Assembly: GCF_027913035.1 (NCBI RefSeq)
Contig: NZ_CP115775.1
Location: 2,823,501 to 2,887,500, forward strand
DNA from: Paracoccus albus
GTDB taxonomy: Bacteria > Pseudomonadota > Alphaproteobacteria > Rhodobacterales > Rhodobacteraceae
Direction of reading: 5' to 3'
Length of the DNA: 64,000 nucleotides
Shown: one piece after another, positions 7,649-48,538 of the stretch
How positions within the stretch are numbered: position 1 is the stretch's first letter
How the letters are laid out: the number at the start of each line of letters is the position of its first letter
The notes under the pieces: generated by a model
Seen by the model: the letters and a program-made list of their open reading frames with translations, nothing else
The model's database searches: none
Told to the model about the DNA's origin: nothing
Position numbers and translations under genes: made by a program

Positions 7649-9109
7649 TCAGCCGTGCTGCGCTGTAACGGTTTTCAAACGCGAAAAGCCATACAGCGCC
7701 TCGAACCCTTTTTCGCGACCGTGGCCAGACTTGCCGACTCCGCCGAAAGGCAGTTCGACGCCCCCGCCCGCACCATAGTTGTTGATGAACACCTGACCGA
7801 CATTCAGCCTTCGCGCCATACGCATCTGTCGAGCGCCGTCGCGCGTCCAGACCCCGGCGACAAGGCCGTAATCTGTGCCATTGGCGATCCGGATCGCCTC
7901 GGCCTCATCGTCGAACGGGATCAGGACCTGAACCGGGCCGAAGACCTCCTCCTGTGCAAGGCGATGATCCGGTGGAACATCGGCAAACAGGATCGGCGCG
8001 ACATAATGCCCAGCGGCAGGTGCACGATCCGCGATGACCCCTTCCGCCGCGACAGTAAGTTCGCTTTTGCCAAGGACAATGTAGTCGCTCACGATCTTCT
8101 TCTGCTTGGCAGAAACCAGCGGCCCAAGATCAAGATTTTCCGCCGCTGGTCCGACACGCAGCCCCGCATAAACCTCTGCCATTCGGCGGCGAACCTCATC
8201 ATAGATGCCCCGCTGAACCAGAACGCGCGACGCGGCAGAGCAGGTTTGTCCGGCGCCCTGAATACACGCGCCCACCAATGTCGGCAGGGCTGCTTCAAGG
8301 TCGACATCGTCAAACACGATATGCGGGCTTTTCCCGCCGAGTTCCAATGTGACGGGAACGACGTTCCGCGCCGCGGCCTCTTGTATGTGCTGTCCGGTCA
8401 GGACCGATCCGGTGAAAGAGACATGATCGACACCCGGATGGGTCGACAGTGCCCGGCCAACATCGGCCCCGTATCCCGTCACCACATTCAGCGCCCCGGC
8501 CGGCAGACCAGCCTCTGCCGCCAGTGCCGCGAATGCCAGCGATGAAAGCGAGGCATCCTCTGCCGGTTTCAGCACACAGGCATTGCCCATCGCAAGTGCC
8601 GCCCCGACAGAGCGCCCAAGGATCTGCATCGGATAGTTCCACGGAATGATATGCGCCGTCACACCATGCGGTTCGCGCAGTGTATAGACGGTGAAACCTT
8701 CCTGATAAGGAATGGTCGTGCCATGCAGTTTATCCGCCGCCCCGCCGTAGAACTCCAGATAGCGGGCAAGCGCGACTGAATCGTTACGGGCCTGTTTCAT
8801 CGGTTTGCCGACATCGGTCGATTCCAGAAATGCCAGCTCTTCCGCGCGCTCTTTTACCAATTGCGCGAGGCGGGTCAGCAGGCGACCCCGCTCGACCGCG
8901 GGGGTGCGGCCCCAATCCCCTTCAAGGGCCAGCTGCGCGGCTGCGACGGCCTTGTCGACATCATCCGCCGATGCCTGTCCGATTTCACCGACCACTTCAC
9001 CGGTCGAGGGGTCCTCGACCGCAATCGTCGCGGCATTGCCGGGGTCTTGCCACGCACCGCCGATAAAGATTTTCTTGGGGTCAAACCACAGCGTTTGCTG
9101 GATATTCAT
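7649..9109 (-). CDS. NAD(P)-dependent aldehyde dehydrogenase
   Basis: A 486-residue aldehyde dehydrogenase of full family length. The oxyanion asparagine is in PWNYP (about 156-160), the general base Glu256 in LELGGK and the nucleophile Cys290 in GQTCSAA. The start at 9109 is chosen over an upstream in-frame ATG at 9145 because GGAGGAAA (9114-9121 on the plus strand as its complement) sits at ideal spacing and homology begins there. It oxidises an aldehyde to an acid in the cytoplasm. It is divergent from a TRAP permease pair, so the intergenic 9110-9283 may hold shared control. The substrate is unknown. Confidence 0.88.
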   Translation of the reverse strand: MNIQQTLWFDPKKIFIGGAWQDPGNAATIAVEDPSTGEVVGEIGQASADDVDKAVAAAQLALEGDWGRTPAVERGRLLTRLAQLVKERAEELAFLESTDVGKPMKQARNDSVALARYLEFYGGAADKLHGTTIPYQEGFTVYTLREPHGVTAHIIPWNYPMQILGRSVGAALAMGNACVLKPAEDASLSSLAFAALAAEAGLPAGALNVVTGYGADVGRALSTHPGVDHVSFTGSVLTGQHIQEAAARNVVPVTLELGGKSPHIVFDDVDLEAALPTLVGACIQGAGQTCSAASRVLVQRGIYDEVRRRMAEVYAGLRVGPAAENLDLGPLVSAKQKKIVSDYIVLGKSELTVAAEGVIADRAPAAGHYVAPILFADVPPDHRLAQEEVFGPVQVLIPFDDEAEAIRIANGTDYGLVAGVWTRDGARQMRMARRLNVGQVFINNYGAGGGVELPFGGVGKSGHGREKGFEALYGFSRLKTVTAQHG

Positions 9110-9283
9110 CAGGTTTCCTCCATCCGCGGATGCCCTTTGCCGCACGCATCGGGATATCTTACCAGGAAAACATTGCCCATACCCGACACCGAAGCGGTCG
9201 ACAAATTCGGTTGTTGTTGAGAATACTGTGCCAGCACCTGTGTCGTCTGAACATGGCTGGCCCAGGTCCGTAAGGGGGGCTGA
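9110..9283. promoter_or_regulatory. Divergent intergenic region
   Basis: This 174-bp gap separates the start of the aldehyde dehydrogenase from the start of the TRAP permease pair, so promoters for both directions must lie here or just inside the genes. No clear -35/-10 pair or strong palindrome could be picked out by eye. Confidence 0.35.
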
Positions 9284-9775
9284 ATGAATCTTTTACGACG
9301 CGGCGCCGAATGGCTGATGGTTGTGACCCATAATATCGCGGCCCTGTTACTTGCGGTGGCGTCAGGCATGGTCATCTATCAGGTGTTCACGCGCTTTGTG
9401 CTGGGCGATGCCTCTGGCTGGTCAGAGGTCGCCGCGCGCGGAACAATCATCTGGATGGTCTTCATCGCGGCTGGTGTCGGCTTTAGAACAGGCGCGATGA
9501 TTTCGCTGGAGTTTATTCGTGGCGTGTTGCCGCCCCCGTTGCGGCGGGTTGTGCTGCTGCTTGTCGGCGGGCTTGTGCTGCTGTTTCTGTGTATCCTGGG
9601 CTGGTACGGGATCCAGATGGTGCTGCGCGTGCAGAATCAAAGGGCCGCAATGCTGGGCGTGTCGATGAGCTGGCTTTACGCTGCCATTCCCGTGGGATGC
9701 ATCATTGCCATTCCGGGGGTGATCCTTGCCCTGATCGACCCGCCGCGCCGCCCTGAAGAGGATCTGCCCGAATGA
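9284..9775 (+). CDS. TRAP transporter small permease (DctQ type)
   Basis: A 163-residue protein with four predicted membrane segments (about 20-40, 52-72, 90-112 and 130-152) and the DctQ-type stretch WSEVAARGTIIWMVFIAAGVGFR. With the large permease it forms the membrane part of a sodium-driven tripartite importer for carboxylates. AAGGGG precedes the ATG. It overlaps the next gene by 4 bp. No DctP binding protein is adjacent, which is unusual for this family. Confidence 0.85.
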   Translation: MNLLRRGAEWLMVVTHNIAALLLAVASGMVIYQVFTRFVLGDASGWSEVAARGTIIWMVFIAAGVGFRTGAMISLEFIRGVLPPPLRRVVLLLVGGLVLLFLCILGWYGIQMVLRVQNQRAAMLGVSMSWLYAAIPVGCIIAIPGVILALIDPPRRPEEDLPE

Positions 9776-32998: not shown

Positions 32999-34057
32999 TC
33001 AATCTTCACGCCAATCGCGCAGCAGCGGCGCACCGCCGTCCTGCAAGCCGCCGATATAGGCGTCCAGAACGCCCGCACCATCCAGCCCCTCTTCCCCGGC
33101 TGCATCGGCCCATGTTTTTGCGATCTGCGGCAACGCATCGGCCCAACGCTTCTTCTCGGCATCGTCCATTTCGGAAACGCCGCCTTCATCGGTGTCCAGC
33201 ACCTCCATCGCTGCGGCAACACGCTGTTCCTGTTCATCCAGATAGGCCGCAGTATAGGCTTTGGCGCCTTCGCGCAGCGCATTCTGCACTTCTTCGGGCT
33301 GCTCTGCAAACCAGTCGCCATTTGCGACGACAGCACCCGCATATTGCGCGCCGAAATTGGTGACGGTGGTATAGGGCGCAACCTCTTGCAGTTTCGCCGG
33401 GGACGCAGCGGTCGGGAAAGTAATGACGCCCTCGAAAACGCCGGTCTGAATATCGCTGTAATAGGTGGTCAGATTGCCCGAAACCCCAACTGCGCCGGTT
33501 CCTTCCAGCCAGTTGACCGCAGGTCCCGGCGCGGCGATCCGCTTTCCGCTCAAATCGTCGATGGAATTCACCGGGAACGTCGTCATCAGCACATAATTGT
33601 CCAGCGTGAAGCCGCCGCCCAGATATGCCAGCCCGTATTTGTCCCACGCCTCGGTCATCGCGGGAACATCGGCGTAAAGCTTATCCATTGTCGCCATGAC
33701 CAGGCGGGGATCACCCGATGAAAACGGCGTGAAATACGACACGTTTTGAAGGGGCAGCGCGGTTGGTTCGAACACGGTCGGCACGACGCCGACTTCGGCA
33801 AGACCGTCCTCAAGCGCCTCCAGCTCACCACCGACAGCGGCCAGCGTCCCGCCATAGTTTTCCGTCCAGGAGATCTGGTAGTCCGTACCCTCCAAAGCCT
33901 GATCAACAGTCGGAATGAAGGTCTCTGTCAGGTGCTTCACCCAAAGGAAAACCGGCGGGTGTCCGTTAACCACGGATACGCGAATTTCTTCTTGCGCCAT
34001 CGCAGCGCCAGTTTGCGCAAGCAATATAGCGCCGGTACTTAGTAGCAGTTTTCTCAT
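32999..34057 (-). CDS. TRAP transporter substrate-binding protein (DctP type)
   Basis: A 352-residue periplasmic binding protein. Residues 1-21 are a signal peptide ending in AMAQ. The mature protein shows the DctP fold, with GKRIAAPGPAVNWLEGTGAVGV near 168-189, where the family's ligand-binding region lies, and EGVITFPTAASPAKLQEVAPY. AGGAGAAG precedes the ATG. It delivers the ligand to DctQM encoded after it. A cyclic or keto acid is plausible from the enzymes, but it is unproven. Confidence 0.88.
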   Translation of the reverse strand: MRKLLLSTGAILLAQTGAAMAQEEIRVSVVNGHPPVFLWVKHLTETFIPTVDQALEGTDYQISWTENYGGTLAAVGGELEALEDGLAEVGVVPTVFEPTALPLQNVSYFTPFSSGDPRLVMATMDKLYADVPAMTEAWDKYGLAYLGGGFTLDNYVLMTTFPVNSIDDLSGKRIAAPGPAVNWLEGTGAVGVSGNLTTYYSDIQTGVFEGVITFPTAASPAKLQEVAPYTTVTNFGAQYAGAVVANGDWFAEQPEEVQNALREGAKAYTAAYLDEQEQRVAAAMEVLDTDEGGVSEMDDAEKKRWADALPQIAKTWADAAGEEGLDGAGVLDAYIGGLQDGGAPLLRDWRED

Positions 34058-39719: not shown

Positions 39720-40487
39720 TCAGTTCCGGTTCATCGCCGTCAGCAGCTCACGCGCCGCGCCGGTCAGCAGACCCAGATCGACACCACAGGCAACAAACCG
39801 ATAGCCCATTTCACAATAGCGTTTCGCATCCGCCATATTTGTGGCGAGGATGCCGGGTGCCTTACCCGCTGCAATGATCCGCTTGGCAGTCTGCGCCAGT
39901 TGTTCCTGCACATCGCGTGCGGAGGGATTCCCCAGATAACCAAGCGACGCCGAAAGATCGGAGGGACCGATGAATATTCCGTCAACGCCATCAACAGCAG
40001 CGATTGCCTCTATTTCGTCTAGCGCGGCACGGGTCTCGACCTGAACGATGGTGCAGATCTCGGCATTTGCGGTTTGCAGATAGTCGGGCTGCGTACCGTA
40101 TCGGCTGGCGCGTGTTCCGCCTGCCACGCCGCGTATGCCTTCGGGCGGATAGCGGGTTGCTGCCACGGCGCCGGCGGCTTCTTCGGCATTCTGCACAAAC
40201 GGCACCAATACGGTCTGCGCCCCGACATCGAGGACGCGCTTGATCAGCACCTTGTCGTTCCATGCGGGACGTGCGGCGCAGCTCGCGGTGCCGGTGGCTG
40301 CGGCCTGAAGAAGCGACTGTAATTGCGCAATCTCGACCGGGGCGTGTTCTGTATCGAACAGCAGCCAGTCGAAACCCAGAAGCGACAGGGCCTCGGCGGC
40401 GACAGGGCTGGCAAGGCTCATCCACAGGCCAAGCTGAGTTTCACCCGCCAGCAGGCGCTGCTTAAAAAGGTTTTTCGGTGCCGGCAT
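39720..40487 (-). CDS. hpaI: HpcH/HpaI-family aldolase (4-hydroxy-2-oxoheptanedioate aldolase type)
   Basis: A 255-residue class II pyruvate aldolase. His48 lies in FDTEHAPVE, the metal glutamate in VQVETRAALDEI and the substrate loop in GIFIGPSDLSASLGY. Members cleave 4-hydroxy-2-oxo acids to pyruvate and an aldehyde at the end of meta-cleavage routes. Its ATG overlaps the stop of the HpaH-like hydratase gene, giving the usual hydratase-aldolase order. Confidence 0.87.
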   Translation of the reverse strand: MPAPKNLFKQRLLAGETQLGLWMSLASPVAAEALSLLGFDWLLFDTEHAPVEIAQLQSLLQAAATGTASCAARPAWNDKVLIKRVLDVGAQTVLVPFVQNAEEAAGAVAATRYPPEGIRGVAGGTRASRYGTQPDYLQTANAEICTIVQVETRAALDEIEAIAAVDGVDGIFIGPSDLSASLGYLGNPSARDVQEQLAQTAKRIIAAGKAPGILATNMADAKRYCEMGYRFVACGVDLGLLTGAARELLTAMNRN

Positions 40488-41269
40488 CAGACGAACCTGA
40501 CCGCGACAGAGCCGAGCGGGCCGAAATCTGCGTGCAGTGTATCGCCCTTATTGGCCCAGACCGGACGCGTGAAGGACCCGGACAGGATCATGTGACCGGG
40601 TTCCAGAGTGGTCCCGAATGCGCCCAGCTTATTGGCCAGCCACGCCACCGCCATGGCCGGATGGCCCAGCACGCCCGCGGCAATGCCCGTTTCCTCAATC
40701 CCGGCATTGCGATAGAAAATCGCGCCGACCCAACGCAGATCGACCTCATCAGGCCTGACAGGCCGCCCGCCAAGCACCGTCCCCGCAGCGGCCCCATTAT
40801 CGGCGACCGTGTCAAAGATGCGGCGCGGTTCGGTTACGCGGGCGTCGATGATTTCGATGGACGGCACCACCCATTCGGTCGCACGCAACACATCGACCAG
40901 ACCCACGCCGGGGCCTTTCAGTGGCTCTTTCAGGATAAAGGTCAGCTCAGGCTCGACGCGCGGCACGCAGAAACTGTCAAACGGAACCTCGGCACCGTCC
41001 TGCAACACCAGATCGTCGAACATATAGCCGTAATCCGGCTCATCTATCTTGGACGCGGCCTGCATCGCCTTGGAGGTCAGCCCGACCTTGTGACCAACGA
41101 TGCGGCGGCCTTCGGCGATTTTCGCGTCGGCCACCATCGACGAAATGGCATAGCTGTCCTCGATCTCGATCTCGGGGAACATCTCGGAAGGGCGCTTGCC
41201 CTGCACCTTGGTTCGGTGGCTTTCCAGAAGCGAGGCGACGGCCTCGCGGCGTTGTGCATCACTGAGCAT
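40487..41269 (-). CDS. hpaH: 2-oxo-hepta-3-ene-1,7-dioate hydratase
   Basis: A 260-residue member of the HpaH/MhpD hydratase group. The motifs GHKVGLTSKAMQAASKIDEPDYG, PRVEPELTFIL and PSIEIIDARVTEPRRIFDTV match HpaH closely. It adds water to the ring-cleaved dienoate so that HpaI can cut it. The start at 41269 is set by homology; an open frame continuing 45 codons upstream overlaps the next gene and is not supported. It begins 8 bp after the chimeric gene's stop. Confidence 0.87.
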   Translation of the reverse strand: MLSDAQRREAVASLLESHRTKVQGKRPSEMFPEIEIEDSYAISSMVADAKIAEGRRIVGHKVGLTSKAMQAASKIDEPDYGYMFDDLVLQDGAEVPFDSFCVPRVEPELTFILKEPLKGPGVGLVDVLRATEWVVPSIEIIDARVTEPRRIFDTVADNGAAAGTVLGGRPVRPDEVDLRWVGAIFYRNAGIEETGIAAGVLGHPAMAVAWLANKLGAFGTTLEPGHMILSGSFTRPVWANKGDTLHADFGPLGSVAVRFV

Positions 41270-41277
41270 CTTCGGAC

Positions 41278-42669
41278 CTATAGTTTGACGCAGACATTGC
41301 GCAGTTCGGAATAGAATTCCATCGAATGGACCCCACCCTCGCGGCCGATCCCGCTGGATTTCGCGCCGCCAAAGGGCGTGCGCAGATCGCGCAGGAACCA
41401 GCAATTCACCCAGCTTATGCCGACCTCGACGCCTGCTGCCACGCGGTGGGCCCGTTGCAGGTTGGTCGTCCAGATCGACGTGGCAAGCCCATAGGGCGAG
41501 TTATTGGCAAGGGCCACGGCCTCATCTTCGCTGTCGAAGGGCTGAAGATGCGTGCAGGGGCCAAAGATTTCGTCGGTGACGACGGCGGCATCCTCGGGCA
41601 GGCCGGTCCAGACGGTGGGTTCGACCCAATAGCCGCCCTCATATCCCTGCATTTCGGGCGCGCCGCCCCCGGCCAGAATGTTGGCCCCGGTAGCACGGGC
41701 CTTGTCGTAATAGGACAGCACCTTCTGGCGATGTTCTGCGGAAATCACCGGCCCCATCGTCGTGGCATTGTCGAACGGGTCGCCAAGGCGATAGCTGCGG
41801 GCCTGTTTGGCCAGCCCCTCGGCCACGCGATCAAAGACACCACGCTGGACATAGATGCGTTCGGTCCCCAGACAGACCTGCCCGGTATTGGCGAAGCACG
41901 CCCGCCCGATACCCTCCATCGTCGCCTCAAAATCAGCGTCGTCGAAGATGATACCGGGATTTTTGCCGCCCGTGCCACCGGACAAGGCAAAGACCGAATG
42001 CGGGCCGATATCACACCAGCGGGGGGCAAGCGCCTCGGTCACGGCACGTTCTGTATCCTCTAGGCTTGCCGCGCCGGTGGTTACCAGATGCACGGCCTCT
42101 CGCCACAGGGCAAGCTGAAGGCGATTGACCAGATGCCCCTTCACAGGCTTATGCAGTGTCAGGACGGTCTTGCCCGCGCCTTCATAGATTTGTCGCGCGG
42201 AATCGATCGCCTGTGGTTGACAGACCGATCCGGCCGACATCTCGACCACCGGCATGAGCCAGGGCGGATTGCACGGATGACCGATAAGCAGACGGTCGGC
42301 AAGGCCCGTCTCTTCCGCAATCTGATCGGCTGTAAAGGTGGACGAACTGGAAGCAATCGCCCTCGCCTGCGCCAGAACCGGCGCAATGGCGCGCAGAGCG
42401 CGCCGCTTTAGTGCAAGATCTTCTGGCAGCGCCTCTTGCAGGAAATCGGCCCGCGCGGCGTCATCAGTGCTACCAATACGTGGAGGCGTGGCTTCGGCGG
42501 TCAGCCGGCCCATCTGCTCCAAAACGGGTCGGGCCTGTTGCCAGCAATCGCTCAACCTGTCTGCCGCAACCGGATCTGGATCAAGCGCCACGACATCATG
42601 ACCCGCCGCCCCGAAGGCCACAGCCCATCCTGTCCCGATCAGCCCGCCGCCGAGGACAGCGAGGCGCAT
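41278..42669 (-). CDS. Chimeric protein: 3-hydroxyacyl-CoA dehydrogenase N-part fused to semialdehyde dehydrogenase C-part
   Basis: A 463-residue in-frame chimera. Residues 1-230 match NAD-dependent 3-hydroxyacyl-CoA / L-carnitine dehydrogenase-type proteins: LAVLGGGLIGTGWA fold, SSSS, His131 in IGHPCNPP, Glu143 and Asn182 in HLVNRLQL form the catalytic set. After GGTGG (231-235) the chain becomes the C-terminal half of a 2-hydroxymuconate-semialdehyde-type aldehyde dehydrogenase, with nucleophile Cys266 in GQVCLGTERIY and the ending FLRDLRTPFGGAKSSGIG...NVCVKL. The dehydrogenase loses its last roughly 80 residues, and the aldehyde dehydrogenase loses its NAD fold and general-base Glu. The start at 42669 overlaps the DctM stop. 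It may be a deletion scar, a new protein, or an assembly error. Confidence 0.8.
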   Translation of the reverse strand: MRLAVLGGGLIGTGWAVAFGAAGHDVVALDPDPVAADRLSDCWQQARPVLEQMGRLTAEATPPRIGSTDDAARADFLQEALPEDLALKRRALRAIAPVLAQARAIASSSSTFTADQIAEETGLADRLLIGHPCNPPWLMPVVEMSAGSVCQPQAIDSARQIYEGAGKTVLTLHKPVKGHLVNRLQLALWREAVHLVTTGAASLEDTERAVTEALAPRWCDIGPHSVFALSGGTGGKNPGIIFDDADFEATMEGIGRACFANTGQVCLGTERIYVQRGVFDRVAEGLAKQARSYRLGDPFDNATTMGPVISAEHRQKVLSYYDKARATGANILAGGGAPEMQGYEGGYWVEPTVWTGLPEDAAVVTDEIFGPCTHLQPFDSEDEAVALANNSPYGLATSIWTTNLQRAHRVAAGVEVGISWVNCWFLRDLRTPFGGAKSSGIGREGGVHSMEFYSELRNVCVKL

Positions 42670-43940
42670 CAGCCCAGCCAATTGTTCAAGCCCAGTGTCA
42701 GCACCGGGAACAGGGCCAGCATCACCAAAACCAAGGCGACCGCCAGAAAGAACGGTGTGATCAGCATGGCCAGGCGTTCCGCCCGAACGTTGCCCATCAT
42801 AGAAGCCGCAAAAAGCCCTGTCCCGACCGGTGGCGTCAGCAGGCCAGCGGTCAGGTTAAGACAGACGATAACGCCGAACTGAAAAGGGTCGATGTTGTAA
42901 ATGTTCACCGCGACCGGCAGGAACACGGGTACAACAAGGATGATCGCTGGTATGGGATCAGTGATCATGCCCAGAAGCAGCAGCATCAGGTTGATCAGCA
43001 GCAGAAAGATCAGCGGTGAGGTCGTCACGCTTTGCAGCCAGGCCGATACGATTGCGGGCAGGTTGTTAAAGGTGATGACCCAGGAAAACAGCCCGGCCGC
43101 CGCGATCAGGAACAGCACCACGGCAGAGGACGCGCCCGCCCTGATGAAGGAAGGCCAGATATCGGACCATTCCATCTCTCGATAGACGAAACGCCCGATC
43201 AGGATCGCCAGAATGCTGGCCACTGCCGCGGACTCCGTTGGTGTCGCGATACCGCCAAGGATGGTGCCGATGATGACGACCGGGATCAGCGCGGCGGGCA
43301 GAGCATCCCGCGCGGCGCGAACACGCTGCGTCATCGTCACCTTTTCGCTGCGGGGAAAGTCATATCTTTGCCCGAGCCAACCAATCACGGCCAGGAAGAC
43401 GATAAACAGGATCACCCCCGGCACGATCCCGGCAATGAACAGGTCCCCAATGGGAAGCTGAGCAATGACTCCAAAGATAATGAACAGCATGGAGGGCGGT
43501 ATGATCGGCGCAAGCATTCCGCCTGCCGCCGTAATCGCGACCGAGACATCGCGTGGATAGCCCGTGCGCTCCATCTCGGGCACGGCGACACGCGACATGA
43601 TGGTGATCTGCGCGACGGTAGAGCCAAGAATCGACGCCATCATCATATTAGCCACAAGGTTCACATAGGCCAGCCCGCCCTTAACAGATCCAAGCAATGC
43701 GACCGCAAGGTTCATCAGGCGTCGTCCGATGCCGCCGGCATTCATGAACTCACCAAGCAAAATGAAAAGTGGCAGGGCTAGAAGTCCGTAATTCTCCAGC
43801 CCGCCGAAGAACTGTTGCGGAAAGCTCTGGAAAAGGATGGCGTTACCGCTGGCCCATATCATGATCATGGCAAAAGCGATAAGCGCGAAAGCAATCGGCA
43901 CACCGATGACAAGCATTGCCAGGAAGGACAGCCCGGTCAT
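42669..43940 (-). CDS. TRAP transporter large permease (DctM type)
   Basis: A 423-residue DctM-type permease with the conserved PLFILLGEFMNAGGIGRRL, AGGMLAPIIPPSMLFIIFGV, GTILGGIATPTESAAVAS and GLLTPPVGTGLFAAS stretches and about 12 membrane helices. It overlaps the DctQ gene by 4 bp. As in the pair at 9284, no DctP gene is adjacent. Confidence 0.9.
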   Translation of the reverse strand: MTGLSFLAMLVIGVPIAFALIAFAMIMIWASGNAILFQSFPQQFFGGLENYGLLALPLFILLGEFMNAGGIGRRLMNLAVALLGSVKGGLAYVNLVANMMMASILGSTVAQITIMSRVAVPEMERTGYPRDVSVAITAAGGMLAPIIPPSMLFIIFGVIAQLPIGDLFIAGIVPGVILFIVFLAVIGWLGQRYDFPRSEKVTMTQRVRAARDALPAALIPVVIIGTILGGIATPTESAAVASILAILIGRFVYREMEWSDIWPSFIRAGASSAVVLFLIAAAGLFSWVITFNNLPAIVSAWLQSVTTSPLIFLLLINLMLLLLGMITDPIPAIILVVPVFLPVAVNIYNIDPFQFGVIVCLNLTAGLLTPPVGTGLFAASMMGNVRAERLAMLITPFFLAVALVLVMLALFPVLTLGLNNWLG

Positions 43941-44497
43941 TGCAACTTATCCGGCGCGGGCTTGCCAAAGCGGGCGGCAACATGGATCAGCCCTGAGAAA
44001 CAGAAAAACGGCATGATCAGCCAGAACCATAGCTTGCGGATACCAAGCGTCGTCGTCGGCTCCTGATACATGAAATTAAAGCTGTCGCGGGCGTAATCCG
44101 ACATGCTTTCCGCGGCAATTACGCCGGGCAGATCAAACCAGTTCCACAGGGTCCAGCCGAAAATCAGCAGGATCGCCAGCAGGACGGTATCAACCACGCG
44201 CAGCAGATTTTTCTGTGCGCCGGGCCCAAGCCTATCGGCCAGAAGCGTTACGGCCAGATGCTCGCGGTTTGCGATTCCAAGCGACGCACCGGCAAAGGCA
44301 CCTACAACCATGAGATACACCGCCAACTCATCTGTCCAGATCAGCGGTCGCCCGAAAGCACGCGAGACGACATTTGCCAGCAGCAGCGCCAGTACCGTAA
44401 GGATCATAAGCCCGGTCAGTCGCGCCTCGGCCCAAGCGAATCCCGCACTCAGCCTTTGCAGCGGACCCGATATCTCACTCTGTGGAAGCTCGGCCAT
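43937..44497 (-). CDS. TRAP transporter small permease (DctQ type)
   Basis: A 186-residue protein with four predicted membrane helices and the DctQ-type LLANVVSRAFGRPLIWTDELAVYLMVVGAFAGAS region. It is the first gene of the minus-strand meta-cleavage unit and is divergent from the GntR regulator. A DctP gene would normally precede it; none does. Confidence 0.86.
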   Translation of the reverse strand: MAELPQSEISGPLQRLSAGFAWAEARLTGLMILTVLALLLANVVSRAFGRPLIWTDELAVYLMVVGAFAGASLGIANREHLAVTLLADRLGPGAQKNLLRVVDTVLLAILLIFGWTLWNWFDLPGVIAAESMSDYARDSFNFMYQEPTTTLGIRKLWFWLIMPFFCFSGLIHVAARFGKPAPDKLQ

Positions 44498-44558
44498 AAT
44501 CCCCCCAATTGCTTAGAGAGATCGCACATACTGGTTTGCCTCCCTCCGGAAATTGAAT

Positions 44559-44600
44559 AAATATCGATATTTTTATTCTGTCAAACCTAAAATCGATATT
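44559..44600. promoter_or_regulatory. Paired ATCGAT-centred operators in front of the GntR gene
   Basis: AAATATCGATATTT at 44559-44572 is a perfect 14-bp palindrome. A second copy of the core, AATCGATATT at 44591-44600, lies with its ATCGAT centre 29 bp away, close to three helical turns. Both lie in the gap between the divergent DctQ and GntR genes, so they are good candidates for GntR binding and autoregulation. Confidence 0.65.
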
Positions 44601-44666
44601 CTTGCGCTTGCCGATCAGCTTGGATACGCTTGCCCAGACAAGTCACATAAAAAGAGGTCGCCTGCG

Positions 44667-45362
44667 TTGAACCAGTTTGAGCCTGAAGTGCAGGAAAAAA
44701 CGCTGTCCGAACGCGCCTATCGCGTTATCCGCGAAGACATCGTTTCGGGTAAGCTTGCGCCCAGTCAGAAGCTGAAGATCGACATGTTGCGGCAGCGCTA
44801 TAGTCTGAATGCGAGCCCACTGCGCGAGGCTCTGTCGCGATTGGCTGGCGATAATCTGGTCGAGGTTTTGGGCCAGCGGGGATTTGCCGTTGCCCCGATC
44901 TATCCCCGCGATGCCGAGGAAATCGGCGACCTCCGCAAGATGCTGGAGGCAGAGGCATTGGCGCGCTCCATCCCGCGCGGCGATAGCGCATGGGAAGAAC
45001 GACTGATTACCGCCTATCATCGCTTGTCGCGCTATGAGGTCGGGCACGATCAGGGCATTGACGAACTGGCCGCATGGGAACTGCGGAATTTCGAGTTCCA
45101 CGAAGCAACGGTCGCTGCCTGTGACAGCCTCTGGCTGCTGCGCGTGCGCGAACAGCTGTTCCGCCAACATGAGCGCTATCGCCGCTTCAGCCGCATCATG
45201 TCGGTCGCCACGCGGGCCATTCATGACGAACACGAAGCCCTGTTCGAAGCCTGTATCGCCCGCAACGTCACCCTCGCACAGGATGTGATCGCCAGCCACA
45301 TCCAGCGTACCACCGATGCGGTCACCTCTGCTCTAAAAGAGAATGGCGATAGGCAGGATTAA
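44667..45362 (+). CDS. GntR-family (FCD subfamily) transcriptional regulator
   Basis: A GntR regulator with winged helix (TLSERAYRVIREDIVSGKLAPSQKLKIDMLRQRYSLNASPLREALSRLAGDNLVEV) and an FCD ligand domain carrying the metal-type histidines and arginines of RKMLEAEAL, NFEFHEATV and IHDEHEALFEA. The chosen start is a TTG at 44667 (231 residues) with AGAGG 9 nt upstream. An ATG at 44553 would add 38 residues of unlike sequence lying across the operator palindromes. It probably controls the divergent TRAP/meta-cleavage operon. Confidence 0.83.
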   Translation: MNQFEPEVQEKTLSERAYRVIREDIVSGKLAPSQKLKIDMLRQRYSLNASPLREALSRLAGDNLVEVLGQRGFAVAPIYPRDAEEIGDLRKMLEAEALARSIPRGDSAWEERLITAYHRLSRYEVGHDQGIDELAAWELRNFEFHEATVAACDSLWLLRVREQLFRQHERYRRFSRIMSVATRAIHDEHEALFEACIARNVTLAQDVIASHIQRTTDAVTSALKENGDRQD

Positions 45363-45634: not shown

Positions 45635-47881
45635 ATGAATGGCACTTTGCTGGACAATATTCGTCCTGACAGAAGGTTTTTTATTCTGTCCATCGCATCC
45701 GCAGTTCTTGCTGCGTCGACCGCGCCCGCATTGGCAACCGGCAGCCCGCCACCGGCACAGCAGGCCGCGCTTCGCGCCACGCATGACGCGCTTTTCGGGC
45801 TGTGGTTCCCTTTGGACGAACTTGGCCTCAGCGATACGGTTAAGGACGCGGTCACGCCGATTTCCGCTCAGGTCAGCGACGGCATCTTCGCAGCATTTCA
45901 GGAACCCCCGCTGAGCGCGCTTCTGGCCGGCATGACCAACCCCGATGCCCTGCCCTTCCACGACAAGCTGGTCGCCAGCGACAACGATGCCGTCAAGGCT
46001 TTCATCTCCAGCCCCGGCGGGTTCGGGGCGCTTGGCCCGGATCAGCAATCGGCGCTTTTGTCTTTCTTCATGAGCGGCAGCGCCGGACCTGTCGCAACAC
46101 AGATTGCACAGGTCCTGCGTGAGGCCTATCTCAGCATGATCTGGGGCCTGCCACTGGCCGAACCCCTGGCAGATTTCGTCGCGCCGCCGGTCTTCGTCAA
46201 ACAACCCGACATTTACGCCGGTCTGAATGCCCCGAAAATAGCACCCAGCCGGCTGCGCTATGATCCGGCGACTCAGACCGTTTCACATGCAGATGGCCCG
46301 ATAGAATATCTCGTGATCGGCAGCGGGCCCGGCGGGGCGACGGTCGCAAGCCAGCTTCGGCAAGCGGGCAAGCGGGTCGTGCTGGTGGAAAAGGGGCCGT
46401 TCGTTGTCTGGGGCTCGATGGATACGCGCAGCTATGCCGGGCTGATGTATCGCCACGACCGCGCGGCGACGGTTGACAATGCCATCGTCATTCGCAGCGG
46501 CGAAACCCTTGGCGGCGGTTCTGCCGTCAATATCGACCTCGCCTTTTCGCCGCTGGAGGCAACCGTTCAGGCCCGCATCAATGAATGGATCGAAAGCGGG
46601 TTAATGGATGGCGATTACTACGCCACCGACAGCATTGCGGCGGCGTATCAGTGGGTTCGCGAAGCCATCGGCACAAGGACATTGTCCGAATCCGAATTGA
46701 ACAACGACAATCGCGTGTTGTGGGACGGTGCGGCATCCTATGGCGTCGATCCGTCGCTCTATCATCTTAACCGTTTTCCGGTCGGCGACTCTCCATCCCC
46801 GGTGAACGACAAGCGCGATGCGGCGCGCCAGCTGATCTATGAAGCGCTTGGCGATGATACAAATCCACTTGGCCTGATCCCCGACGCGACGGTCGACCGC
46901 ATCATTTTCGACGACACGGCCAAGCGGGCAACCGGCATCAGCTTTCGGGCAAACGCACCCTGGACCGATCATGGCAACACCATCGTCGATCCTGCGGGTC
47001 TGAACCTGCCGCTCGATCAGCCATGCACGATAAATGCGGAAAACGTCGTTCTGGCGGCCGGAACGCTTGGTTCGACGCGCGTGCTGCTCAATACGGCAGA
47101 AGCGAATCCGGCAGTTGCCAATGACCTGATCGGTCGCGGGTTGATCCTGCATCCCTCATTCCCGCTGATGGGGCGCTTCGACAAGACGATCAATCTGCTG
47201 CAAGGGCTGGACAGTGCGACCTATGTCAGCTCCTTCGGCGTGTCACCGGGGTTTATCTATGAAACGATGGGCGGTTTGCCGGCCTATGGCGCGCCGCTGA
47301 TACCCGGCAGCGGCAAACAGGTCTTTGATGAGATCAGCAGTTTCAACAACTATGCCGGCTTCGGCTGTATGCTGGTCGACACCCCTTCGCATGACAACAG
47401 GATCGTTCTGGATGCAGAGGGCAATACGACGGTCGAGTACAGTCTCAGCGCCGATGACAAGGCGCGGTTCAGGACGGGCGTCGGTATCGGCATCCGGATG
47501 ATGTTCCTGGCCGGGGCCAGTCAGGTCATCATTCCATCAAGCGAGAACGTGCTGGGCCTGCCCGATTTCGACCCGATGGTCGGCACCTACCTGACCGATA
47601 TCGCTCAGGCCGATCTGGTCGAGCAGAATATCGCCTTCACCCCGAACCGGACAACGCTGACCTCGGCACATCTTCAGGCATCGAACAAGATGGGGCCGCA
47701 TGGACAGGGTGTGGTTTCCCTGCGCCACAGGCTCTGGGCGGCTGACGGGTCAGAGATACCGAATGTCTATGTCATGGACAGCAGCATTTTCCCGACCTCG
47801 GTCGGGGCGAACCCGATGCAGTCGATCTATTCCATCGCGAAGATATTCTCTGATCGTCTGATCGCGGGCATCCCGACCTAG
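45635..47881 (+). CDS. Tat-exported GMC oxidoreductase with extra N-terminal domain
   Basis: A 748-residue protein. Residues 1-35 form a twin-arginine signal (DRRFFILSIASAVLAASTAPALA). About 36-220 is a helical region not seen in plain GMC enzymes; it may stand in for the separate small subunit of gluconate-dehydrogenase-type complexes. The FAD fold EYLVIGSGPGGATVASQLRQ starts near 225, and the C-terminal half has the active-site His in TSAHLQASNKMGPHG and VGANPMQSIYSIAKIF. The ATG at 45635 has AAGGGG upstream. It should oxidise an alcohol or sterol in the periplasm. The stop codon lies at the edge of an insertion element. Confidence 0.82.
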   Translation: MNGTLLDNIRPDRRFFILSIASAVLAASTAPALATGSPPPAQQAALRATHDALFGLWFPLDELGLSDTVKDAVTPISAQVSDGIFAAFQEPPLSALLAGMTNPDALPFHDKLVASDNDAVKAFISSPGGFGALGPDQQSALLSFFMSGSAGPVATQIAQVLREAYLSMIWGLPLAEPLADFVAPPVFVKQPDIYAGLNAPKIAPSRLRYDPATQTVSHADGPIEYLVIGSGPGGATVASQLRQAGKRVVLVEKGPFVVWGSMDTRSYAGLMYRHDRAATVDNAIVIRSGETLGGGSAVNIDLAFSPLEATVQARINEWIESGLMDGDYYATDSIAAAYQWVREAIGTRTLSESELNNDNRVLWDGAASYGVDPSLYHLNRFPVGDSPSPVNDKRDAARQLIYEALGDDTNPLGLIPDATVDRIIFDDTAKRATGISFRANAPWTDHGNTIVDPAGLNLPLDQPCTINAENVVLAAGTLGSTRVLLNTAEANPAVANDLIGRGLILHPSFPLMGRFDKTINLLQGLDSATYVSSFGVSPGFIYETMGGLPAYGAPLIPGSGKQVFDEISSFNNYAGFGCMLVDTPSHDNRIVLDAEGNTTVEYSLSADDKARFRTGVGIGIRMMFLAGASQVIIPSSENVLGLPDFDPMVGTYLTDIAQADLVEQNIAFTPNRTTLTSAHLQASNKMGPHGQGVVSLRHRLWAADGSEIPNVYVMDSSIFPTSVGANPMQSIYSIAKIFSDRLIAGIPT

Positions 47882-48538
47882 GTGTTTAGTCCCGGCATCT
47901 GGTGGATTGGATCGACGATGAATCGGTTGGGCTCTGAAGTCCAGATTTTGCAGATGTACTGGTAGGATGTGAGGCCGCTGAGCGTCTTGAGGCGGCGGGC
48001 GAAGTTGTACGCATCAAGGAAATCGGCGAGATGGCTGCGGAGTTGTTCGTGGCTTTCGTAGTGGTAGCGCTTGACGGTCGCGTCCCTTATCGTCCGGTTC
48101 ATTCGCTCGACCTGGCCGCTTGTCCAGGGATGGTTGGACTTGGTGCGTCGGCGCTCGATCCCGTTCGCCCCGCAGATCATATCGAACCGCATCGGCCGTG
48201 AGATGCCGTGTCGCTGAAGGCATCTGTGCAAAGAAGAACGCGTGAGATGCGGGATCGTCGGCTGCAGGGCATAGAGACAGTCGTCCAGCGGCAGCAGAGT
48301 GTGCCGACGAAAGGCGACGACGATGCCCTCTTCCTGCTCGCTGAGGACGGTCGAGCGCGACTCTTTCGGACCGGTCTTAAGATCCTCGACTGACTTCCGC
48401 TGCCGCCACTTCGCGACCGTCTTCGGGTTAATCCCAAGGTCGCGGCTTAGTTAGCTCCGCGGTCGAAGCTTGCGATCGCTGTATTGCTGCTCTGATGGCG
48501 TGCGTGGTCGTGGCGCTGCCGTGACGTATCTGTCCCAT
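47878..48538 (-). pseudogene. IS481-family transposase, frameshifted and internally deleted
   Basis: Reading from the ATG at 48538, the product begins MGQIRHGSATTTHAIRAAIQ, then is thrown out of frame by a duplicated CTAA near 48448-48455. The other frame continues with INPKTVAKWRQRKSVEDL to HRCLQRHGISRP. It then jumps in frame to MRFDMICGANGIERR, so about 100 residues carrying the first two acidic residues of the DDE triad are gone. The C-terminal NHPWTSGQVERMNRTIRDA with the last catalytic Glu and the tail IDPIHQMPGLNT-type end remain. It cannot encode an active transposase. Confidence 0.88.

What the first reader, a model, noticed from the sequence alone, without database searches (positions are those of the whole stretch)
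41278..42669. In-frame chimera of a hydroxyacyl-CoA dehydrogenase and a semialdehyde dehydrogenase inside a shrunken meta-cleavage operon
The sequence shows a 3-hydroxyacyl-CoA/L-carnitine-dehydrogenase-like N-part with its Ser, His131, Glu143 and Asn182 set intact, joined at GGTGGKNP (about 41965-41985) to the C-terminal half of a 2-hydroxymuconate-semialdehyde-type aldehyde dehydrogenase. Both families have a GG-rich motif at that point, so recombination at a GG-coding microhomology is a simple explanation. The aldehyde dehydrogenase half keeps Cys266 but lacks the NAD-binding domain and general-base Glu. The neighbourhood also lacks a ring-cleavage dioxygenase and a DctP, as expected if the lost DNA carried them. 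A functional new fusion is the exciting alternative.
Basis: partly seen in the sequence, partly recalled or inferred. Interest (0 to 1): 0.85.

Follow-up and report, generated by a model that had tools for sequence, protein, structure and literature searches.

The report
Deletion-made fusion gene, probably dead
A stretch of about 4.5 kb dropped out of a gene cluster for breaking down aromatic compounds and glued the front of one enzyme gene to the back of another, most likely leaving a non-working remnant; bacterial deletion-made fusions of this kind have already been described.

Summary
In detail: window 41281-42669 (-) is one open frame of 463 residues, a hydroxyacyl-CoA-dehydrogenase-like (HADH) N-part joined at residues 233-235 to the C-half of a 2-hydroxymuconic-semialdehyde dehydrogenase (HMSD). 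Relatives explain it. In L119 (Pukyongiella litopenaei by matching proteins) the order is HADH > DctP > two extradiol-type dioxygenases > class II aldolase > HMSD > HpaH > HpaI; 11 of 19 loci examined (10 distinct genomes) share it. The window aligns to L119 on both sides of the junction and lacks the 4.5 kb between, which was not found elsewhere in its genome. No other spanning protein is among the 120 best hits of 8000 scored; of 125 genomes of the genus only the window's own matches both sides. The fusion lacks the end of HADH and the HMSD NAD domain and general-base Glu. The window branch shows no excess amino-acid change: the deletion is recent (favoured) or the parts stay constrained. 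Another genome of the genus has an independent out-of-frame deletion in this operon. Assembly error cannot be excluded without reads; a new functional enzyme is improbable.

The parts
41281..42669 (-). fusion ORF, 463 aa (stop codon 41278-41280)
41971..42669 (-). HADH-derived part, residues 1-233 (NAD-binding domain plus the first helices of the C-terminal domain)
   Evidence: Pfam; alignment with L119 HADH to window 41974; at residue 233 the listed HMSD homologues have L or M, the HADH relatives shown vary (A, R, D, E, K, T)
41965..41970 (-). GGC GGC, the stretch that could come from either parent; junction
41281..41964 (-). HMSD-derived part, residues 236-463 (catalytic domain with Cys266; no NAD-binding domain, no ELGGK Glu)
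40487..41269 (-). 2-oxo-hept-4-ene-1,7-dioate hydratase (HpaH) gene, open frame intact
   Evidence: TIGR02312 357.4 bits, cut-off 351.5
39720..40487 (-). HpaI/HpcH-type aldolase gene, open frame intact
   Evidence: PF03328; best NCBIfam model TIGR02311 at 320 bits, below its cut-off 368.8
42669..43940 (-). TRAP transporter large permease (DctM); its stop overlaps the start of the fusion
   Evidence: PF06808
43937..44497 (-). TRAP transporter small permease (DctQ)
   Evidence: PF04290
44553..45362 (+). GntR/FCD regulator, divergent
   Evidence: PF00392, PF07729

Best explanation
A single deletion of about 4.5 kb inside a conserved aromatic meta-cleavage operon removed the end of the HADH gene, DctP, both extradiol-type dioxygenase genes, the class II aldolase gene and the first half of the HMSD gene, and by chance joined the two remaining halves in frame at GG-coding codons. 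The resulting 463-residue protein keeps a complete HADH NAD-binding domain and the HMSD catalytic domain but most likely performs neither reaction, and the operon by itself can no longer open the ring. Shown: the two parents, the ancestral order in relatives, the missing segment, the in-frame join. Inferred: the microhomology mechanism, that the event is recent, and that the product is non-functional.
For: Window 45356-41974 and 41970-39732 align to L119 15320-11940 (81%) and 7434-5196 (84%), leaving about 4.5 kb unmatched. Order HADH > DctP > VOC1 > VOC2 > AldII > HMSD > HpaH > HpaI in 11 of 19 loci examined, 10 distinct genomes since L129 and L022 look the same; in these 11 the matching edges lie 4.45-4.60 kb apart (coordinates). 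The 4.8 kb L119 segment matches the window's genome at the two edges of the fusion and otherwise in four short weak stretches of 46-142 bases. At protein level its VOC2 has one 27% relative there, DctP 12 relatives at 21-29%, VOC1 and the class II aldolase none; the same aldolase query matched 4 of 4 genomes that carry it, no such control was run for VOC1. Only P0001 spans both halves among the 120 best listed of 8000 scored candidates, and of 125 genomes of the genus, own included, only G000 matches both sides of the junction. The fusion scores 381 bits for TIGR03216 against a cut-off of 693, the intact parent 815. All 117 HMSD-side homologues listed carry E-(L/M)-GGK; the fusion has G at the Glu position.
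Against: Neither part shows excess amino-acid change on the window branch (L120 as outgroup: HADH part 9 window vs 12 L119, HMSD part 5 vs 7), and there is no stop or frameshift, so continued constraint cannot be told from a recent event. The HADH part keeps its NAD domain and the invariant site residues and is predicted to fold alone (pLDDT 92.5), so residual activity is not excluded. L119 does not itself show a good microhomology at the junction.
Confidence: 0.85

Rival explanations
1. A deletion-born fusion that has acquired or kept a function: the HADH NAD domain with the HMSD catalytic domain, or simply a still active HADH with a new tail.
For: Frame kept over 463 codons, no excess change on the window branch; HADH part predicted to fold alone and HMSD part predicted well in the full model; conserved site residues of HADH and Cys266 kept.
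Against: HMSD general-base Glu and NAD domain gone; end of the HADH C-terminal domain gone; dioxygenases and DctP of the operon gone; no second genome with it was found. An open frame is expected if the deletion is recent.
Confidence: 0.06
2. Assembly error: the real genome has both genes whole and the assembler dropped 4.5 kb.
For: Reads were not available; the join is seen in a single genome.
Against: The genome is 5 contigs, 99.99% complete by the tool's figure, with the locus inside a contig of about 3.3 Mb. In L119 no direct repeat of 18 bases or more pairs the two edges, and the missing segment was not found in any contig. An arbitrary mis-join would keep the frame only about one time in three.
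Confidence: 0.05
3. A single recognised full-length family or an old natural fusion.
For: None found.
Against: In one search no listed protein but P0001 itself covers more than 55% of it (120 listed of 8000 scored); next best score 496 bits against 1059. In one search, from the HADH side, the 119 listed proteins other than P0001 are 293-334 aa long.
Confidence: 0.02

Closest known systems
Deletion-born fusions (Kaul et al. 2026, preprint, PMC12803068; abstract, Introduction and the Results section on putative fusions across the tree read)
   Same: A deletion joins the start of one ORF to the end of another; the split state is ancestral; the DNA between is ordinary gene content (in their set such segments match mobile elements significantly less often); their narX example involves a 4.6 kb difference within one operon.
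   Different: Their 44 candidates come from five very deeply sequenced species; this one is seen in one genome, so fixation, expression and selection cannot be judged.
2-hydroxymuconic semialdehyde dehydrogenase (TIGR03216; solved relatives are 2-aminomuconate 6-semialdehyde dehydrogenases such as 7bzv, 4i1w)
   Same: C-half, residues 236-463, 93% identical to P0002; catalytic Cys kept.
   Different: N-terminal NAD-binding half and the general-base Glu are missing; 381 bits against a cut-off of 693.
Lambda-crystallin / carnitine-dehydrogenase-like HADH (solved relatives of intact P0121: 3ado, 3f3s, 4om8)
   Same: NAD-binding domain and conserved Ser, His, Glu, Asn kept; 77% identical to P0066.
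   Different: About the last 70 residues (rest of the C-terminal domain) missing.

Membership tests
Deletion-born fusion | Relatives carry both parents whole, same strand, separated by the deleted DNA | tested here: met
   11 of 19 loci, edges 4.45-4.60 kb apart; L127 has another order, 7 loci show no HADH in the stretch held
Deletion-born fusion | Start of one ORF and end of another joined in one open frame | tested here: met
Deletion-born fusion | Intervening segment is ancestral content, not an inserted mobile element | tested here: met
   DctP, two VOC dioxygenases and a class II aldolase in conserved order
Deletion-born fusion | Fusion expressed, spread or under selection | not testable with these tools
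   one genome only; no expression data
TIGR03216 2-hydroxymuconic semialdehyde dehydrogenase | Whole-profile score above curated cut-off | tested here: not met
   381.2 bits vs 693.25, profile 246-481 of 481
TIGR03216 2-hydroxymuconic semialdehyde dehydrogenase | Catalytic Cys | tested here: met
   C266 in GQVCL; its role is recalled
TIGR03216 2-hydroxymuconic semialdehyde dehydrogenase | General-base Glu of E-L-G-G-K and N-terminal NAD domain | tested here: not met
   G232 at the Glu position; 117 of 117 listed homologues have Glu; Aldedh match starts at profile 236
3-hydroxyacyl-CoA dehydrogenase (Pfam 3HCDH_N + 3HCDH) | NAD-binding domain with conserved Ser/His/Glu/Asn | tested here: met
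   104.5 bits, cut-off 22; S107, S108, S110, H131, E143, N182 invariant over the 53-row alignment
3-hydroxyacyl-CoA dehydrogenase (Pfam 3HCDH_N + 3HCDH) | C-terminal domain as complete as in the intact parent | tested here: not met
   3HCDH 1-42 of 97; intact P0121 matches 1-65 of 97
NCBIfam HADH equivalogs (NF004783, NF005471, NF005716) | Curated cut-off | tested here: not met
   fusion 178, 137 and 140 bits vs 347, 414 and 592; the related intact protein P0066 also fails all three, so the enzyme's exact substrate is open

The most novel reading that the evidence does not exclude
The deletion made a new working enzyme in one step: the HADH NAD-binding domain now serves, or sits beside, the HMSD catalytic domain, and the product is kept by selection, caught at birth.
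Probability: 0.04. Interest if true: 0.75.

Novelty: new member of a known kind. Interest (0 to 1): 0.3.

Why it matters
It is a clean, reconstructable example of a bacterial deletion that creates an in-frame fusion of two metabolic enzymes, with the parents and their order visible in relatives. It shows the first step of fusion-gene birth, and warns that a domain architecture seen in a single genome (3HCDH_N + Aldedh) may be a scar rather than a bifunctional enzyme.

Tried and rejected
Old natural fusion or recognised family: rejected, no other spanning protein among the hits listed. Rearrangement with the lost genes moved elsewhere in the genome: rejected, no copy found. Insertion rather than deletion: rejected, the intervening genes stand in conserved order in relatives. 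Viral origin: a scan of viral contigs gave six pattern matches, none a relative. Plasmid relatives: 451 records match at 60-80% identity, none covering 80% of the operon; not followed further.

First structure model of the whole fusion gave pLDDT about 90 in most of the HMSD half and low values in the HADH half. I do not use the low values: the alignment behind it had misplaced the HADH rows (21-30% identity there against 46-82%). With a clean alignment of 52 of the 119 HADH proteins listed, the HADH part alone gave pLDDT 92.5. A predicted fold is not evidence of stability or activity. The placement of the two halves relative to each other was therefore not tested.

The microhomology statistic (random breakpoints in L119 HADH and HMSD: 6 or more shared bases in 0.3%) is not used as a test, because the undeleted parental allele is not known.

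Full report
What is there. Window 42669-41281 on the minus strand is a single open frame of 463 residues. Pfam assigns residues 3-172 to 3HCDH_N, 178-219 to the first 42 of 97 positions of 3HCDH, and 233-459 to positions 236-461 of Aldedh. NCBIfam's best model is TIGR03216, 2-hydroxymuconic semialdehyde dehydrogenase, but only its second half and far below the cut-off (381 vs 693 bits); the intact relative in L119 scores 815. Their catalytic roles are recalled; that the HADH ones are invariant in a 53-row alignment is.

How it arose. The protein search listed no other protein spanning both halves (120 best of 8000 candidates; P0001 1059 bits, next 496). A moderately similar fusion should have outranked single halves, but only the best 120 could be seen. 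The listed hits match either the C-half (P0002, 93%, named Pukyongiella litopenaei) or the N-half (P0066, 77%). In the family search (16 of 394 genomes with a match at E 1e-75 or better), G354 carries both genes on one strand; its contig has the same length, 3,892,138 bases, as the one behind P0002 and P0121. The fetched stretch L119 aligns to the window in two blocks, 45356-41974 at 81% and 41970-39732 at 84%, with L119 7435-11939 absent from the window. That stretch holds the end of HADH, DctP, two VOC proteins related to extradiol dioxygenases, a class II aldolase and the first half of HMSD. Of 19 relative loci examined, 11 have the order HADH > DctP > VOC1 > VOC2 > AldII > HMSD > HpaH > HpaI; L129 and L022 appear to be one genome, so 10 distinct ones. 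L127 has HMSD in another place. The other 7 (L124, L125, L126, L128, L023, L024, L025; L126 and L023 also look alike) show no HADH in the stretch held. So HADH is a variable member of the operon, and the window descends from the full form.

Junction. The codons are G231 GGT, G232 GGC, T233 ACG, G234 GGC, G235 GGC, K236 AAA (41979-41962). The HADH relatives shown mostly read (S/A)-G-(G/A)-x-x-G-M here (P0066: S-G-G-A-G-G-M), and all 117 listed HMSD-side homologues read E-(L/M)-G-G-K. T233 is not the HMSD residue, so the cross-over lies within GGC GGC or at its edges. If the lost HADH allele read G-G at 234-235, as P0066 does, 6 to 8 bases were shared; at the least the invariant HADH Gly and an HMSD Gly share GG. 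L119's own HADH reads R-Q-G there and shows little microhomology. No direct repeat of 18 bases or more pairs the two edges in L119.

Is anything left elsewhere? A DNA search of the window's genome with L119 7300-12100 found the two edges at the fusion (86-87%) and four short weak matches of 46-142 bases. At protein level VOC2 has one 27% relative, DctP 12 relatives at 21-29%, VOC1 and the class II aldolase none; the aldolase query matched 4 of 4 carrier genomes as a control, none was run for VOC1. No close second copy of either parent was found: best HMSD-side match 44%, best HADH-side match 38%. Across the genus, 5 of 125 genomes match the junction region, and only the window's own matches both sides; the other four match the HMSD side, the earliest match starting about ten bases before the junction. 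I infer that the genus is Paracoccus, since G033 contig 124 has the length (11,197 bases) of the contig behind proteins named Paracoccus sp..

Age and constraint. Between window and L119, dN/dS is 0.15 for the HADH part and 0.05 for the HMSD part, against 0.04-0.13 for five neighbours. The HADH value is thus the highest of the seven, but the excess is not on the window branch: with L120 as outgroup, changes on the window branch are 9 (HADH) and 5 (HMSD), on the L119 branch 12 and 7. Counting only sites where all outgroups used agree, they are 3 and 0 against 2 and 1; two untouched neighbours, HpaI (6 against 3) and DctQ (3 against 1), lean more to the window branch than the fusion does. A rough bound puts the unconstrained share of the window branch at no more than about 5-10% (it assumes equal branches and three quarters of sites non-synonymous). 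So the deletion is recent on that scale, or the parts are still constrained. One genome cannot decide this; I prefer recent, because essential HMSD elements and the upstream pathway are gone.

What it can do. The HMSD part keeps Cys266 but lacks the NAD-binding domain and the Glu of the ELGGK motif; structures of E268A and N169A mutants of the related aminomuconate enzyme are among the matches (titles only), and the equation of E268 with the ELGGK Glu is mine. The HADH part keeps its NAD domain and the conserved site residues, and a clean AlphaFold2 run folds it confidently up to about residue 220, so weak HADH activity is conceivable. The in-frame join also keeps translation running to the HMSD stop, eight bases before the HpaH start, but this needs no selection: one join in three would be in frame.

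A second case nearby. L125 (G080, same genus) has an independent deletion in the same operon: roughly the first 95-100 residues of DctQ are joined to the class II aldolase gene, out of frame, and DctM, HADH, DctP and both VOC genes are absent from the 17 kb held. VOC2 has only a 25% relative in that whole genome. The genome is a draft of about 210 contigs at 86% completeness, so an assembly fault is possible there. With the window's case, 2 of the 5 carriers seen among 125 genomes of the genus have lost the operon's dioxygenases, apparently by an internal deletion. This fits decay of a dispensable operon better than birth of a new enzyme.

Literature. Kaul et al. 2026 (PMC12803068, preprint; abstract, Introduction and one Results section read) describe deletion-born fusions across bacteria. 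This case fits their anatomy; spread, expression and selection are untested. For the pathway, passages of PMC6362003 report a class II aldolase decarboxylating a ring-cleavage product in another meta pathway, and TRAP-type transporter genes in such a cluster. Two searches for an operon of this make-up listed nothing closer; its substrate remains unknown. Whether this particular fusion is in print was not searched.

Noticed in passing
L125 (G080) about 9013-9360 and 8415-9047: Independent, out-of-frame deletion in the same operon of another genome of the genus: DctQ start joined to the class II aldolase gene, with TRAP large permease, HADH, DctP and both dioxygenases missing.
   Followed up: partly
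L124 (G029) 12184-12068: DctM is followed directly by DctP with no HADH gene between; HADH is a variable member of the operon.
   Followed up: no
window 47878-48231: Fragment with an integrase core domain (rve_3, rve_2), probably an insertion-sequence remnant beside the GMC oxidoreductase gene.
   Followed up: no
window 32999-34057: A separate DctP-family binding protein gene, near an aldehyde dehydrogenase gene and what looks by eye like a TetR-type regulator; not the operon's lost DctP.
   Followed up: no
G000:C1 2166732-2172362: Another cluster in the same genome with three aldehyde dehydrogenases (32-44% to the fusion) and a VOC protein; perhaps an intact homoprotocatechuate-type pathway.
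   Followed up: no
window 39720-45362 vs L119: The operon's closest relative found is in another genus (91-93% in the HMSD part) while the four other carriers in its own genus are at 73-81%, and homology to L119 ends at the operon's edges; suggests horizontal transfer.
   Followed up: no
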